64,000 nucleotides of DNA. Origin: Streptomyces resistomycificus. GTDB lineage: Bacteria; Actinomycetota; Actinomycetes; Streptomycetales; Streptomycetaceae. Positions 1,602-7,596 of the stretch are shown one piece after another; positions within the stretch are counted from its first letter, which is position 1; each line of letters starts with the position of its first letter. A program made the translations under genes and the position numbers. Where the stretch lies: positions 62,001-126,000 of the forward strand of contig NZ_KQ948989.1 of NCBI RefSeq assembly GCF_001514265.1. Direction: 5' to 3'. A model generated the notes under the pieces. The model had not been told where the DNA came from and did no database searches. It saw nothing but the letters and a program-made list of their open reading frames with translations.

Positions 1602-2594
1602 TCAGCCCGTCGGCTCGCCGTGCAGGCGTACGGTGCTGAGGATCTTCATGATGGTCTCCTTGGAGACCTCTTCGTCGACGCCCTTGGCGCCGTAGAAGTT
1701 CCACGACACGAAGTCACCGGCGGAGTTCTTGAAGCCGAAGGTGATCGCCTTGCCGTCGGTGACGCACTTGCCCTTCGCGGGCGTGTCCTTCGACGACGCC
1801 CAGGCGTAGCTGCCCTCGACGCCCGACGTGGTCGTGTAGGGCGTGGCCTTCTTGTCGAGCGTGATGCTCTTCTTGTCCGGCTGCGTGTAGCCGCCGTAGA
1901 CCCACCAGGCCGGCGTGTTGATGGCGATCTCGTCGGTGTCCTTGGCTCCGTTGGCGCCCTTGGTGCCGGTCGCGGCCAGGGACATGGTGTCGGTGTTGCC
2001 GTCCTTGTCGTCGTCGGACTCGCACCACTTGGACTTGAGGATCGCCGGCGCCGACATCGTGATGATCGGCTTGATGTCGTCCGAGTTCTCCTCCTCGAAG
2101 GCGACGGCCGACCGCGGGGACTGCACCTCCCAGTCCGCCGGCACGTCGAAGGCCGTACCCCACTTGGGGTTGACGACGATCTTCCAGCCGCTGATGGTCG
2201 CCTTCTCGGCGTCACCGCCGCGCGGGTCGTCCTCGGAGGGGGACGCGCTCGGCTCGGAGGCGCTCGCGGACGGCTTCACGTCCTTGCCGTCCGCCACGTT
2301 CTCCTTGTCGTCGCCGCCCAGCACCAGGAATCCGGTCACACCGGCGGCCACGACCACGGCCAGCGCCGCCACGATCGCGACGACCTTCGTCCGGTTGCCG
2401 CCGTCACCGGGCGGCGGTCCGGGCGGGCCGGCCGGCCCCGGAGCACCCCACTGCGGTTGCTGCGGATAGGTGTTGGGCTGCTGGAATCCGGGCTGCTGGT
2501 ACGGATTCGGCTGCTGGTACCCCGGCTGCTGGTACGGGTTGTGCTGCTGTTGCGGGTTCTGCTCGCCCCCGGGCGGCTGCTGTCCTGGCCACAT
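1602..2594 (-). CDS. Proline/glutamine-rich single-pass membrane protein, paralogue A
   Basis: 330 residues from the ATG at 2594. That start is preferred over an in-frame ATG 30 bases upstream because the paralogue next door begins with the same MWPGQQPPGG. Order of parts: Pro/Gln/Tyr-rich cytoplasmic segment with repeated NPYQQPG-like units (residues about 5-65); a basic stop (NRTK) and one transmembrane helix (VVAIVAALAVVVAAGVTGFLVLGG); a Ser/Pro/Glu linker; then an extracytoplasmic domain of about 190 residues (GWKIVVNPKWGTAFDVPADWEVQ ... WCES ... VYGGYTQPDKK ... GKCVTDGKAITFGFKN). Two cysteines in the outer domain could form a disulfide. This architecture is common in Streptomyces, and the function of the outer domain is not known to me. 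The adjacent gene on the same strand is a diverged copy, so the pair arose by tandem duplication. Confidence 0.8.
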   Translation of the reverse strand: MWPGQQPPGGEQNPQQQHNPYQQPGYQQPNPYQQPGFQQPNTYPQQPQWGAPGPAGPPGPPPGDGGNRTKVVAIVAALAVVVAAGVTGFLVLGGDDKENVADGKDVKPSASASEPSASPSEDDPRGGDAEKATISGWKIVVNPKWGTAFDVPADWEVQSPRSAVAFEEENSDDIKPIITMSAPAILKSKWCESDDDKDGNTDTMSLAATGTKGANGAKDTDEIAINTPAWWVYGGYTQPDKKSITLDKKATPYTTTSGVEGSYAWASSKDTPAKGKCVTDGKAITFGFKNSAGDFVSWNFYGAKGVDEEVSKETIMKILSTVRLHGEPTG

Positions 2595-2685
2595 GGGCAG
2601 CCACCCTAGTCCCGCCAGGGACACGATCAGGTCACCGGGCCTTGTCAGGGACGTAGCAAAACGGTGCCGCGGTGGATCAACTCGC

Positions 2686-3627
2686 CTACGTGGACGGGGG
2701 TGTGTAGAGCCGTACGGTCTTCATGATTTCGCGGACCGTGGCATCCGGGACCTCGTCGTCCACGCCCGCGACCCCGACCAGCGACCAGGACGCGAAGTCG
2801 CCGTCCGTGTTCGTGAAGGCGAAGGTCGTCGCCTTGCCCTCGGTGTCGCACTTGTCCTTCCTGACGGCCCCGGAGGACCGGGAGGTGGCGGTACTGCCGG
2901 TGAGGCCGGAGGTCGTGGTGAAGGAGGTGACCGGCCCGGTGGTGACCTTCTTGCGGTCCGGTTGCGTGTAGCCGCCGTAGACCCACGTCGAGGAGTCGGT
3001 GCGGGCTATCGCCTCCGTGCTCTTGGCGCCGTTGTTGCCCCTGGTGCCCACGGCGGCCAGCGACGTGTAGTCCTTCTCGCCGTCCTTGTCGTCGTCCGAC
3101 CCGCACCACTCCTCCTTGAGGTACGCGGGAGCCTTCATGGCGACGAGGGGCTTGTCCTGCGGGTCGTCGTTCTCGGAGACCCAGGAGACCCAACCCGTGG
3201 ACTGCGGCGCCCAGTCGGACGGGACGTCGAAGGCGACGCCGAGGTCGGGGTTCACGACGACCTTCCAGCCGGCCACGGTGGGCTTCATGCCGTCGGCGGC
3301 GCGGGGGTTGCCCGAGGGGGAGGGGGACGCCGACGCCGGGGAGGTCGTCGGGCCGGGGCCGGCCTCGTCGTCCGAACCGCCGCCCAGGAGCACGGCGCCG
3401 GTGACGGCGGAGGCCAGCACCACGGCCGCGGCGACGCTGATCGCCACCACCTTGGTGCGACGCCCGCCGCCCGGCGGAGCGGGCACCAGGGTGGGCGCGT
3501 CCCACGGCTGGGGCTGCCCGGCATACGGGTTCGCCTGGTGGTATCCGGGCTGCTGGTAGGGGTTCTTCTCAGCCGGGTGCTGCTGCGGGTCCTGCCCGCC
3601 CCCCGGCGGCTGCTGTCCTGGCCACAT
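2686..3627 (-). CDS. Proline/glutamine-rich single-pass membrane protein, paralogue B
   Basis: 313 residues from the ATG at 3627. Same plan as the downstream gene: MWPGQQPPGG start, short NPYQQPGYHQ-type proline-rich segment, GGGRRTKVVAIS followed by one membrane helix, an acidic/Ser/Pro linker, and an outer domain with matching landmarks (GWKVVVNPDLGVAFDVPSDWAPQ, EEWCGSDDDKDGEKD, WVYGGYTQPDRKK, DKCDTEGKATTFAFTN). The two proteins are recognisably homologous over their full length but have diverged a lot in the linker and loops. The 91-bp gap to paralogue A would allow co-transcription. Likely role is at the cell envelope; no enzymatic motif is visible. Confidence 0.8.
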   Translation of the reverse strand: MWPGQQPPGGGQDPQQHPAEKNPYQQPGYHQANPYAGQPQPWDAPTLVPAPPGGGRRTKVVAISVAAAVVLASAVTGAVLLGGGSDDEAGPGPTTSPASASPSPSGNPRAADGMKPTVAGWKVVVNPDLGVAFDVPSDWAPQSTGWVSWVSENDDPQDKPLVAMKAPAYLKEEWCGSDDDKDGEKDYTSLAAVGTRGNNGAKSTEAIARTDSSTWVYGGYTQPDRKKVTTGPVTSFTTTSGLTGSTATSRSSGAVRKDKCDTEGKATTFAFTNTDGDFASWSLVGVAGVDDEVPDATVREIMKTVRLYTPPST

Positions 3628-3697
3628 GGGCGGTAAGGATACGGCGATCACCCGGGGGCTCTGGCCCCGCGAGGCTACTCATGGGTAACATGACGGC

Positions 3698-5330: not shown

Positions 5331-5721
5331 GCTGGCGTACGACGATGGGAACACCCCGAGAGAAAGCTCTGAGCCCGCTGTGTGACGCGGTGGGAAGTTG
5401 GAGATTTCGTGTGCCAACCGGTCTGCGGGGCACACAACTTGACGACGTCACTCCGGGGTATTTTCGAATGTGGGTGCGGATACCGACGGTAACTTTTCTG
5501 AAGTCGCCTCTTTTTGAACTCCGGTCACTCGAACTTCTTGTTTACTGTGACGCGCTTGTGCGAAAGTGAGCGGCCCCTGACCGACCGCTCATTACCGACC
5601 GCACCGACTGCTCAAAACCGACCCGCACCTGACGCGGTATAGGTACGCACCAATCAGGCACCTGCTTTCCTACGGACGCGCATTCCCCATGCCGTCCTGC
5701 GGCTTGGAAGGAATTGGTCCA
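5331..5721. promoter_or_regulatory. Divergent promoter region between galU and the ricin-lectin gene, with ACCGAC iterons
   Basis: A 391-bp region without a gene and noticeably more AT-rich than its surroundings. It must hold both divergent promoters. On the plus-strand side, four related 9-mers (ACCGACCGC at 5580 and 5594, ACCGACTGC at 5603, ACCGACCCG at 5617) form direct repeats just upstream of a good minus-10-like TATAGG at 5638-5643. No matching minus-35 is seen, so the repeats may be an activator site. I could not define the galU promoter. Confidence 0.5.
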
Positions 5722-7596
5722 GTGCAATCCGCCTACCCCCCACGGCCCCCGTACCCTCCCCGCCCCGGATCGAGCCCCGGGGAGTCGGACCGCGACCTCA
5801 TGGCCCGACTCGACGGACCTGCCCCGGACGCCCAGGCCGTTGCCCTGCTGATGGCCCGTCACTGGCGGGCGACCTATGACTACGCGGTCATCTGCCTGGT
5901 CTCGTCGGCCGGTTCGGCGTCCATGGCGGCCGCCGCCGCGTTCCACCGGGTACTGGAACGGGCGGGCGGCGGAGCCGTGCGGCCCCAGCTCCTGAGGGCG
6001 GTACGGGAGACCGTCAAGGAGTGGGCGTCGGACGACGGCATTTGCGCCGTACTGCCTGAACTCCGCAAACCGACCGGCGGTCGCGGACTGCGGGCCGCGA
6101 GGTCGGCCACCCCCGAAAGGCGACAGCTCGCCGAGCGCGCATTCCAGGGACTTCCCGGCGCCTCGCAATGCCTGCTGTGGCATACGGAGGTCGAAGCCGA
6201 GCCCATATCCGTACCGGCCGGACTGCTGGGCGTGGACGCGGCCCGCGCATCGGCCGCCCTGGAACAGGCCCGCGAGCAATTCCGGGCGGGCTGCGCACGG
6301 GCCCACCGGGAACTCGCGCCCACCCGGGAATGCCGCTTCTACAACCGTCTGCTCGACGTGCCCATTCGCCGGGGCGGCTCCCTGCTGCCCGACGTACAGG
6401 AGCATCTGACGGCGTGCCGGTACTGCCGGCACGCGGCGGAACAACTCAGTCATTTCGAGGGCGGACTGGAGGAGTTGCTCGCCGAGACCGTCCTGGGCTG
6501 GGGCGCCCGCCGCTATCTCGACTCCCGGCCGGGTCGCGGAGGCGGCCAGGCCGCTCCGGCCGCGCGTCCCGCCGGACGGCCGAGGCCCGGCGGCCGCCAC
6601 CGCCCCGCCCACCGCCCCGCCCAGGCAGGCCCCCTCGCTGCACCCCGCCGGCACACCAAGACGGTGCTCGTGGGGGCCGGGCTGACCTCCCTCGCCCTGC
6701 TGGCGACCGTGCTCGTCGCCCGGAGCTGGTCCGAGGAAGGCGGCGAACCCGGCCCCCGCGCCACCTGGGGCGCGTCCAGCGGAAACTCCGTCTCCCCGGG
6801 CACCTCGGGCGACGGCCCGTCCGGCGGGTCCCCGTCCGCCGCGTCCGTGGGCAACCCCGTCGAGGTCGGGCACGGCCGGTTCCGCAACGTCGCCGCCGGA
6901 CTGTGCCTCGACGTACGAGGCGGCCGGGCCGAGGACGGAGCCGGGGCGGTGCTGAAGGCGTGCTCCACGGCCCGGACCCAGCAGTGGTCGTACGAGGACG
7001 ACGGGCTGCTGCGCAGTGCCGTCGACCCCAGGCTCTGCCTCGACGCGGACGCCGACGAGGAAACGGTCGTCGTGGCCGACTGTCTGGTGCACGCCGGTGA
7101 GGTCCGCTACGACCTCACCGTCCGGGGTGAACTGCTGCTGCGCCGGGGCGGCGGGCTGCTCGTCGAGGACGGCCCGGGCACGGCCGTGGTAGTCGCCGAA
7201 CGGGACGGATCGGCGGAGCAGCAGTGGGTGCTGGAGAGCGCGGGCGGTGACAGGGGCGGCGCGGAGAAGCGGAGCGGGACGCCGGACAGCCGCTCGAAGA
7301 CGCCGGACTCGGCACCGGAGGACTCGTCGTCACCCGACGGCGACGCACTGAGCGAGGATCCGACGTCGCCGCAGGATGCCCCGGTGGCGCCGCCGCAGTT
7401 CGAGAGGCGGATGGCCCAGGTCGACGCCGACTCCGGTCAAGATCCGGCCGCACCGGCGGCGGACGCCGAGGCCCTCACCGGCGAGGCGCTGGACACGGCC
7501 GGGTCGGTCGTCGACGCGGCGGCCACGACCCTCGACCGGTCGGTCGGCGCGGCGACCGCGACCCTCGACCGGTCGGTCGGCGCGGTGCTCCGCTAG
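5722..7596 (+). CDS. Membrane-anchored sigma-like / zinc-finger protein with extracellular ricin-type lectin domain
   Basis: 624 residues from the GTG at 5722, which has a good Shine-Dalgarno (GGAAGGAA, 5706-5713); an in-frame ATG at 5689 lacks one. Order: Pro-rich N-end; residues about 20-190 resemble a degenerate ECF sigma factor, with a region-2-like helix pair (HWRATYDYAVICLV ... FHRVLE) and a region-4-like part (AFQGLPGASQCLLWHTE ... GLLGV ... ALEQAREQF); an anti-sigma-like zinc-finger motif H228-x3-C232-x2-C235; a basic Ala/Pro linker; one transmembrane helix at about 313-333; Ser/Gly linker; a ricin B-type beta-trefoil at about 383-500 (GLCLDVRGG, QQWSYEDDG, LCLDADAD, EQQWVLES); and a low-complexity acidic tail ending in two near-identical TLDRSVGA units. 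The topology puts the sigma-like and zinc parts inside and the lectin outside. Function unknown; a carbohydrate-sensing or envelope role is inference. Confidence 0.75.
   Translation: MQSAYPPRPPYPPRPGSSPGESDRDLMARLDGPAPDAQAVALLMARHWRATYDYAVICLVSSAGSASMAAAAAFHRVLERAGGGAVRPQLLRAVRETVKEWASDDGICAVLPELRKPTGGRGLRAARSATPERRQLAERAFQGLPGASQCLLWHTEVEAEPISVPAGLLGVDAARASAALEQAREQFRAGCARAHRELAPTRECRFYNRLLDVPIRRGGSLLPDVQEHLTACRYCRHAAEQLSHFEGGLEELLAETVLGWGARRYLDSRPGRGGGQAAPAARPAGRPRPGGRHRPAHRPAQAGPLAAPRRHTKTVLVGAGLTSLALLATVLVARSWSEEGGEPGPRATWGASSGNSVSPGTSGDGPSGGSPSAASVGNPVEVGHGRFRNVAAGLCLDVRGGRAEDGAGAVLKACSTARTQQWSYEDDGLLRSAVDPRLCLDADADEETVVVADCLVHAGEVRYDLTVRGELLLRRGGGLLVEDGPGTAVVVAERDGSAEQQWVLESAGGDRGGAEKRSGTPDSRSKTPDSAPEDSSSPDGDALSEDPTSPQDAPVAPPQFERRMAQVDADSGQDPAAPAADAEALTGEALDTAGSVVDAAATTLDRSVGAATATLDRSVGAVLR

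What the first reader, a model, noticed from the sequence alone, without database searches (positions are those of the whole stretch)
5722..7596. Sigma-like, zinc-finger, transmembrane and ricin-lectin parts in one protein
The cytoplasmic half looks like a degenerate ECF sigma factor followed by an anti-sigma-like HxxxCxxC motif, then one membrane helix and an outside ricin-type beta-trefoil. If correct, one polypeptide would join a carbohydrate sensor to a tethered transcription element. It is unclear whether the sigma part still binds core polymerase or is a relic used as an adaptor.
Basis: partly seen in the sequence, partly recalled or inferred. Interest (0 to 1): 0.65.

Follow-up and report, generated by a model that had tools for sequence, protein, structure and literature searches.

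The report
Streptomyces membrane lectin with worn-out sigma factor
A soil bacterium carries a membrane protein with a sugar-binding part outside and, inside, a gene-switching (sigma) part that has lost residues it would need to switch genes but is still kept under selection, so it probably signals by a different route than its known relatives.

Summary
Observation confirmed. Window 5722-7596 (+) encodes 624 aa: a sigma-like part (about 36-196), a zinc-finger anti-sigma-like domain (C204, H228, C232, C235), one membrane helix (about 312-335) and a ricin-type trefoil (384-504). No sigma model recognises the sigma-like part; its descent from an ECF sigma factor rests on relatives, profile comparison with shuffled controls, and a predicted sigma-2 fold. 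The architecture is that of the published ECF52 group (SCO4117), so the fusion itself is not new. What differs: this protein belongs to a set of Streptomyces paralogs lacking the acidic pair of region 2.2, the surface where ECFs bind RNA polymerase (0 of 113 A/B/C/X proteins keep either residue; 9 of 9 ECF52-like ones keep both), while all four zinc ligands are kept in 136 of 136. The sigma-like and zinc parts are under strong purifying selection (dN/dS 0.16-0.24; 0.44-0.56 in linkers, TM and lectin). Most likely it is a carbohydrate-responsive pseudo-sigma/anti-sigma adaptor, neither a working sigma factor nor a relic. Partner, ligand and mechanism are inferred. Interest 0.45; new variant of a known kind.

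The parts
5706..5713 (+). GGAAGGAA, likely ribosome-binding site 8 nt before the GTG start
   Evidence: read; start supported by similar N-terminal peptides in relatives
5722..7596 (+). whole coding sequence, 624 aa, GTG start
   Evidence: window-type matches in other genomes have no stop inside
5827..6057 (+). sigma-2-like domain, residues 36-112
   Evidence: hhalign of the sigma-2 part alone, score 34.3 vs control maximum 18.1; VIA-align top 24 rows sigma factors
5914..5955 (+). remnant of region 2.2, residues 65-78: the acidic pair of the ECF52-like DDLTAE stretch is replaced (M68, A72)
   Evidence: consensus, column counts
6121..6309 (+). sigma-4-like helix-turn-helix region, residues 134-196; mean recognition-helix charge -0.9 in window-type proteins vs +2.0 in ECF52-like ones
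6310..6525 (+). zinc-finger anti-sigma-like (ZAS) domain and the helix after it, residues 197-268; ligands C204, H228, C232, C235
   Evidence: 136 of 136; lowest dN/dS, 0.16
6526..6654 (+). basic Pro/Arg-rich linker, residues 269-311
6655..6726 (+). transmembrane helix, residues 312-335
   Evidence: hydropathy; flanking charges
6727..6870 (+). extracellular Gly/Ser-rich linker, residues 336-383
6871..7233 (+). ricin-type (R-type, CBM13-like) beta-trefoil, residues 384-504; the first repeat has CLD...QQW, the other two are incomplete
7234..7593 (+). poorly conserved C-terminal tail, residues 505-624
   Evidence: 20% mean identity to the window in 83 window-type proteins

Best explanation
The protein descends from a membrane-tethered ECF52-type sigma factor with a carbohydrate-binding sensor, but its sigma domain is now a pseudo-sigma. 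Shown from sequence: architecture, descent, loss of the acidic region-2.2 pair and of positive charge in the 2.4 core and the 4.2 recognition helix, retention of the zinc site, strong purifying selection on the sigma-like and ZAS parts, weaker selection on the lectin. Inferred: the trefoil binds a glycan outside the membrane; binding changes the cytoplasmic module by conformation or regulated proteolysis; pseudo-sigma and ZAS pack on each other; the module acts by protein contact, either capturing a real sigma factor with its ZAS domain or, like PhyR, offering a sigma mimic to another anti-sigma factor. It does not itself start transcription.
For: Region 2.2: D at the column of window residue 68 in 9 of 9 ECF52-like (E) proteins and in L014, in 0 of 113 A/B/C/X proteins (84 A, 15 B, 12 C, 2 X) and 0 of 12 CBM2-type (D); E at the column of residue 72 in 9 of 9 E, L014 and 12 of 12 D, in 0 of 113. 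Regions 2.1 and 2.2 are described as binding the clamp helices of beta-prime (PMC7406223, passage). Mean net charge of the 2.4 core is +1.9 in E vs -1.4 in A; of the 4.2 recognition helix +2.0 vs -0.9. Zinc ligands 136 of 136. dN/dS pooled over 42 non-overlapping window-type pairs: sigma-2-like 0.24, linker plus sigma-4-like 0.18, ZAS 0.16, basic linker 0.55, TM 0.44, external linker 0.56, lectin 0.45. ZAS is the best conserved part (88% mean identity to the window in 83 proteins). A tree of 82 proteins, rooted on group E, puts L014 (intact sigma pair, ricin) outside the clade of 72 in which the pair changes (support 99). PhyR is a published degenerate sigma domain used to titrate an anti-sigma factor (PMC8103513, passage).
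Against: No partner sigma or anti-sigma factor was found. AlphaFold of the cytoplasmic part has mean pLDDT 67.7, below 50 from residue 247 on, so packing of sigma-2 on ZAS is untested. Losing two acidic residues and charge does not prove loss of core binding. Over the wider helix-turn-helix stretch (160-193) the charge difference is small (E 0.0, A -0.9, D +1.4), and the wider 2.3/2.4 stretch of group C is slightly positive (+0.3). The 113 proteins are related and were fetched by similarity to the window or its paralogs, so they are not independent events. One group C member, L003, still matches NCBIfam sigma models weakly (best 2.4e-4, far under the cut-off), so the decay is graded. Sugar binding is inferred from fold and motif only.
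Confidence: 0.5

Rival explanations
1. It is still a working, very divergent ECF sigma factor: glycan binding outside triggers proteolysis, the sigma part is released from its own anti-sigma domain and directs RNA polymerase to a regulon, as proposed for ECF52.
For: Same order of parts as SCO4117, for which proteolytic release was proposed (PMC5826349, PMC8999054, passages); sigma-2 fold predicted; kept under selection; the related L006 and L014 have recognisable sigma domains.
Against: Acidic region-2.2 pair absent in 113 of 113 A/B/C/X proteins, and the mean charge of the 2.4 core and 4.2 recognition helix changed from positive to negative in group A; no sigma model recognises the window protein or the other 69 window-type domains scanned.
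Confidence: 0.25
2. It is a surface lectin or scaffold: the lectin fixes the hypha or an enzyme to a polysaccharide and the cytoplasmic part is only a conserved anchor.
For: Clear lectin domain with a membrane anchor; paralogs B and C lie on either side of GH2 and GH9 genes.
Against: A mere anchor would not be expected to keep the cytoplasmic part as the slowest-evolving part with an invariant zinc site.
Confidence: 0.13
3. It is a one-component membrane transcription factor that binds DNA through the sigma-4-like helix-turn-helix without RNA polymerase core.
For: The sigma-4-like region is well conserved (84% mean identity; dN/dS 0.18 with its linker).
Against: The recognition helix is on average net negative (-0.9) where ECF52-like proteins have +2.0; Pfam gives no helix-turn-helix match in the window protein.
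Confidence: 0.07

Closest known systems
ECF52 sigma factors, SCO4117 of Streptomyces coelicolor (PMC5826349, abstract and passages)
   Same: Sigma, zinc finger, transmembrane region and extracytoplasmic carbohydrate-binding domain in one polypeptide; actinobacterial. The window's genome has a likely SCO4117 counterpart (L006/L011: sigma region 2, weak zf-HC2, NPCBM; a TetR gene lies next to it as atrA lies next to SCO4117).
   Different: R-type trefoil in place of NPCBM; the sigma domain is not recognised by sigma models and lacks the acidic region-2.2 pair.
ECF53 group (PMC8999054, PMC10766802, passages)
   Same: Described as a C-terminal anti-sigma-like fusion with a transmembrane portion and, in some, carbohydrate-related domains.
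   Different: Not compared directly: no ECF53 sequence was fetched by name.
L014, plasmid protein WP_190031662.1 of S. goshikiensis
   Same: The zinc ligands and a ricin-type lectin follow the sigma part; annotated as sigma-70 family.
   Different: Sigma70_r2 and r4_2 recognised, acidic pair intact.
PhyR of Alphaproteobacteria (PMC8103513, passage)
   Same: A sigma-like domain degenerate where it would meet promoter and core, kept for protein contact.
   Different: PhyR is a response regulator with an N-terminal sigma-like domain; that it is soluble and has no lectin is recalled, not looked up.
Class I (ZAS) membrane anti-sigma factors (PMC7406223, passages)
   Same: HxxxCxxC zinc motif; often a membrane helix after it.
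   Different: Here behind a sigma-like domain in the same chain, with a lectin outside.

Membership tests
ECF52 sigma factors | recognisable ECF sigma domain (TIGR02937, Sigma70_r2/r4) | tested here: not met
   no sigma hit in the window protein at E up to 10 nor in any of 70 window-type domains at E up to 1; the ECF52-like L006 scores 1.9e-14 with TIGR02937
ECF52 sigma factors | zinc-finger domain after the sigma part | tested here: met
   four ligands invariant in 136 of 136; the Pfam zf-HC2 model itself does not match the window protein
ECF52 sigma factors | transmembrane helix | tested here: met
   (hydropathy and flanking charge only)
ECF52 sigma factors | proline-rich stretch and extracytoplasmic carbohydrate-binding domain | tested here: inconclusive
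   a trefoil lectin is there; the external linker is Gly/Ser-rich rather than clearly Pro-rich
ECF52 sigma factors | phylogenetic placement in the official ECF52 group | tested here: inconclusive
   own trees place it in a clade next to the ECF52-like group E and L014; the official ECF52 model was not at hand
functional ECF sigma factor | acidic region-2.2 residues at the beta-prime clamp contact | tested here: not met
   M68 and A72 in the window; 0 of 113 A/B/C/X proteins keep either
functional ECF sigma factor | binds core polymerase and starts transcription | not testable with these tools
   needs an experiment
R-type (CBM13/ricin B) lectin | beta-trefoil fold with QxW repeats | tested here: met
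   Pfam 1.3e-17, Foldseek 8.5e-8; only the first of three repeats has the full CLD...QQW signature in the window
R-type (CBM13/ricin B) lectin | binds a sugar | not testable with these tools
   -
PhyR-like sigma mimic | binds an anti-sigma factor in competition with a sigma factor | not testable with these tools
   proposed by analogy only

The most novel reading that the evidence does not exclude
Streptomyces has a radiating family of one-protein membrane lectin receptors in which the sigma domain has repeatedly turned into a non-transcribing pseudo-sigma while the anti-sigma zinc domain is kept. These receptors would read different glycans through exchangeable modules (ricin, CBM2, LamG) and control real sigma factors in trans by mimicry or sequestration.
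Probability: 0.33. Interest if true: 0.7.

Novelty: new variant of a known kind. Interest (0 to 1): 0.45.

Why it matters
It would show how a membrane-tethered sigma factor can evolve into a signalling adaptor, a membrane counterpart of the PhyR pseudo-sigma, and would give a testable route by which Streptomyces senses polysaccharides. Pfam sees only the ricin domain in it, so the sigma ancestry is easily overlooked.

Tried and rejected
Relic or pseudogene: rejected, since the window-type matches have no stop inside and the sigma-like parts have dN/dS 0.24 or lower. Chance resemblance to sigma through composition: rejected by 100 column shuffles and a reversed profile and an unrelated profile (E 0.48). 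Ribosome-inactivating toxin: only the R-type lectin part is found and no toxin A-chain domain. Phage origin: no PHROG match at E up to 0.01. Operon partner: neighbours are partly conserved but none is a known sigma partner. In 85 other A/X loci a DUF4442 gene is found in 75, a GalU-like nucleotidyltransferase gene in 60 and a DedA/VTT gene in 62 within the fetched flanks (80 of 85 have at least 1.5 kb upstream and 83 of 85 downstream). No second family member lies in the fetched flanks of the window-type loci at E up to 1e-10; other sigma factors were not sought there. A profile search of PDB sequences with the window-type alignment found no sigma factor, and Foldseek had no match at E up to 0.001, its four best rows being SigW and AlgU at E 0.48-0.75. 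A second hydrophobic stretch (residues 56-74, 1.73) was not taken as a TM because it lies in a predicted sigma-2 helix. Groups A and B are only weakly resolved (support 42 for the 13 A proteins; 0.87 for 84). Searches for a published ricin-bearing or pseudo-sigma member gave ECF52/53 and PhyR but no listing that described this variant; two central papers, the ECF re-classification and the 2015 actinobacterial survey, are not held, so it may be mentioned there.

Full report
What is there. Window 5722-7596 (+) is an open frame of 624 codons starting with GTG, with GGAAGGAA 8 nt upstream. In it Pfam recognises only the ricin-type trefoil, 384-502, E 1.3e-17; NCBIfam adds lectin models and a weak anti-sigma match at 225-242, E 0.21. 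One hydrophobic segment lies at about 313-333, with basic residues before it. The zinc motif is C204, H228-x3-C232-x2-C235.

Relatives. The same genome holds four more members: two with ricin domains (L002, group B; L003, group C), one ending in CBM2 (L004, group D) and one with Sigma70_r2, weaker Sigma70_r4_2 and zf-HC2, and an NPCBM domain (L006, group E). Group E fits SCO4117 of S. coelicolor, the studied ECF52 protein (PMC5826349, abstract and passages): same domains, and a TetR gene lies next to it, as atrA lies next to SCO4117. All 31 Streptomyces genomes searched have some member at E up to 0.001. By my reading of the bit scores 16 of 31 have an A/B/X-like copy (8 of 31 a copy placed in A later), 12 of 31 a C-like and 12 of 31 a D-like copy, the last two in the same 12 genomes; one further match in G027 may be D-like. 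In 41 genomes of the family 39 have a match, but matches as strong as groups A, B or C (188 bits or more) occur only in the four or fewer same-genus genomes; the best outside the genus have 106 and 102 bits. From the loci fetched by then I kept 136 non-redundant proteins: 84 A (window-type, window included), 2 X, 15 B, 12 C, 12 D, 9 E, and L014 and L083. Pfam was run on the whole window protein and on six others of these; in the alignment the Trp of the first lectin QxW motif is present in 84 of 84 A, 15 of 15 B and 11 of 12 C.

Is the N-terminal half sigma? Not by direct search: none of 70 window-type domains matches a sigma family at E up to 1, and a profile of them finds no sigma factor among PDB sequences. 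Group C is less far gone: L003 matches NCBIfam sigma models weakly over its sigma-4 part, best E 2.4e-4, far under the cut-off. The window-type profile aligns to the group E profile over 234 columns, E 7.6e-20, and to the group D profile, E 2e-26. An unrelated profile gives E 0.48. With the sigma-2 part alone the score is 34.3 (E 8.2e-6, probability 84%), against a mean of 11.7, SD 2.5 and maximum 18.1 in 100 column-shuffled controls and 13.9 for a reversed profile. AlphaFold of residues 20-290 has mean pLDDT 67.7, with ten-residue means of 69-91 over its first 100 residues. Foldseek's four best rows are SigW and AlgU, but at E 0.48-0.75. In the VIA-align second look the 24 best rows, Z 9.7 to 6.9, are sigma factors alone, with anti-sigma factors or in polymerase complexes (row 5 is titled only RNA-guided transcription complex), and the next row, unrelated, has Z 5.3. 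The tool warns that helical bundles can reach such Z values without kinship, so this supports the case but does not prove it.

What was lost and kept. In the ECF52-like group the region-2.2 stretch reads DDLTAEVF. At the column of window residue 68 D is present in 9 of 9 E and in L014, and in none of 84 A, 15 B, 12 C, 2 X, 12 D and in L083; at the column of residue 72 E is present in 9 of 9 E, L014 and 12 of 12 D, and in none of 84 A, 15 B, 12 C, 2 X and L083. Regions 2.1 and 2.2 bind the beta-prime clamp helices, and helix 4 of class I anti-sigma factors covers the same area (PMC7406223, passages). Mean net charge of the 2.4 core goes from +1.9 (E) to -1.4 (A), and of the 4.2 recognition helix from +2.0 to -0.9; over wider stretches the contrast is weaker (helix-turn-helix 160-193: E 0.0, A -0.9, D +1.4). 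The four zinc ligands are kept in 136 of 136. Of twenty further, more distant loci 2 keep both acidic residues (L180, L181) and 18 show all four zinc ligands in the alignment; the other two, cut short there, have a zf-HC2 match. Of the 19 scanned with Pfam 14 carry a ricin domain, one of these also CBM2, and 2 carry LamG (L192 repeats L083). A tree of 82 proteins rooted on group E places L014, with ricin and an intact pair, outside the clade of the other 72 (support 99). In both large branches of that clade (16 and 56 proteins) some members keep the E and others have lost it. Read by eye, the lectin fusion preceded the decay and the decay happened more than once; no formal ancestral reconstruction was made.

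Selection. Pooled over 42 non-overlapping window-type pairs dN/dS (Nei-Gojobori counts, Jukes-Cantor correction) is 0.24 in the sigma-2-like part, 0.18 in linker plus sigma-4-like, 0.16 in ZAS, 0.55 in the basic linker, 0.44 in the TM, 0.56 in the external linker and 0.45 in the lectin. So the cytoplasmic module is kept for a function, and the lectin drifts faster, as would suit a changing ligand. Mean identity to the window in 83 window-type proteins is 69% in sigma-2-like, 84% in sigma-4-like, 88% in ZAS and 63% in the lectin.

Surroundings. The window-type gene sits in a partly conserved place (Pfam), without an evident partner. Groups B and C lie about 10-21 kb apart in 10 of the 12 genomes that have C. 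Between them in the window's genome are a GH9 cellulase with CBM4_9, a GH2 enzyme, a SpoIIE/PAS/GAF protein and a CitMHS/ArsB transporter; relatives of these genes are found in 9, 8, 11 and 7 of 16 loci searched, several of which do not span the cluster. This ties the sister paralogs, not the window gene itself, to polysaccharide breakdown.

Mechanism. For ECF52, release of the sigma domain by proteolysis after carbohydrate sensing has been proposed (PMC5826349, PMC8999054, passages). Here the sigma end of that chain looks disabled while the anti-sigma end is the best conserved part. I therefore favour an adaptor: lectin binding outside alters the pseudo-sigma/ZAS module, which acts on a real sigma or anti-sigma factor, as the degenerate sigma domain of PhyR does (PMC8103513, passage). 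Partner, ligand and proteolysis are inferred, not shown.

Novelty. The architecture is known. The searches listed under Tried and rejected found no description of a ricin-bearing or pseudo-sigma branch, but two central papers are not held. I file it as a new variant of a known kind.

Noticed in passing
L008 and L009 (same genome, contig C6, 44-69 kb): Paralogs B and C lie on either side of a partly conserved cluster with GH9 (CBM4_9), GH2, SpoIIE/PAS/GAF and CitMHS/ArsB genes; an FMN_dh gene lies beyond B and an AraC-type regulator beyond C.
   Followed up: partly
L008:6515-7141: Two small adjacent ORFs next to B, 88-96% identical in 13 and 12 of 16 loci searched, without a Pfam match at E up to 1e-5; they look like a toxin-antitoxin pair (my guess).
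   Followed up: no
L010 (same genome, contig C1): Group D (CBM2) lies between a gene without Pfam match (found in 10 of 11 D loci, 73-99% identical) and an RsgA GTPase gene (8 of 11).
   Followed up: partly
L014:4956-6641: S. goshikiensis linear plasmid protein with an intact sigma domain, zinc ligands and ricin-type lectin: a good active control for the window protein.
   Followed up: partly
L176: A relative from another genus of the family (G040) with both a ricin domain and a CBM2 in its outer part.
   Followed up: no
window 1602-3651 (-): Two neighbouring, similar-looking proteins with Pro/Gln-rich N-termini followed by a hydrophobic stretch, perhaps a local duplication (by eye).
   Followed up: no
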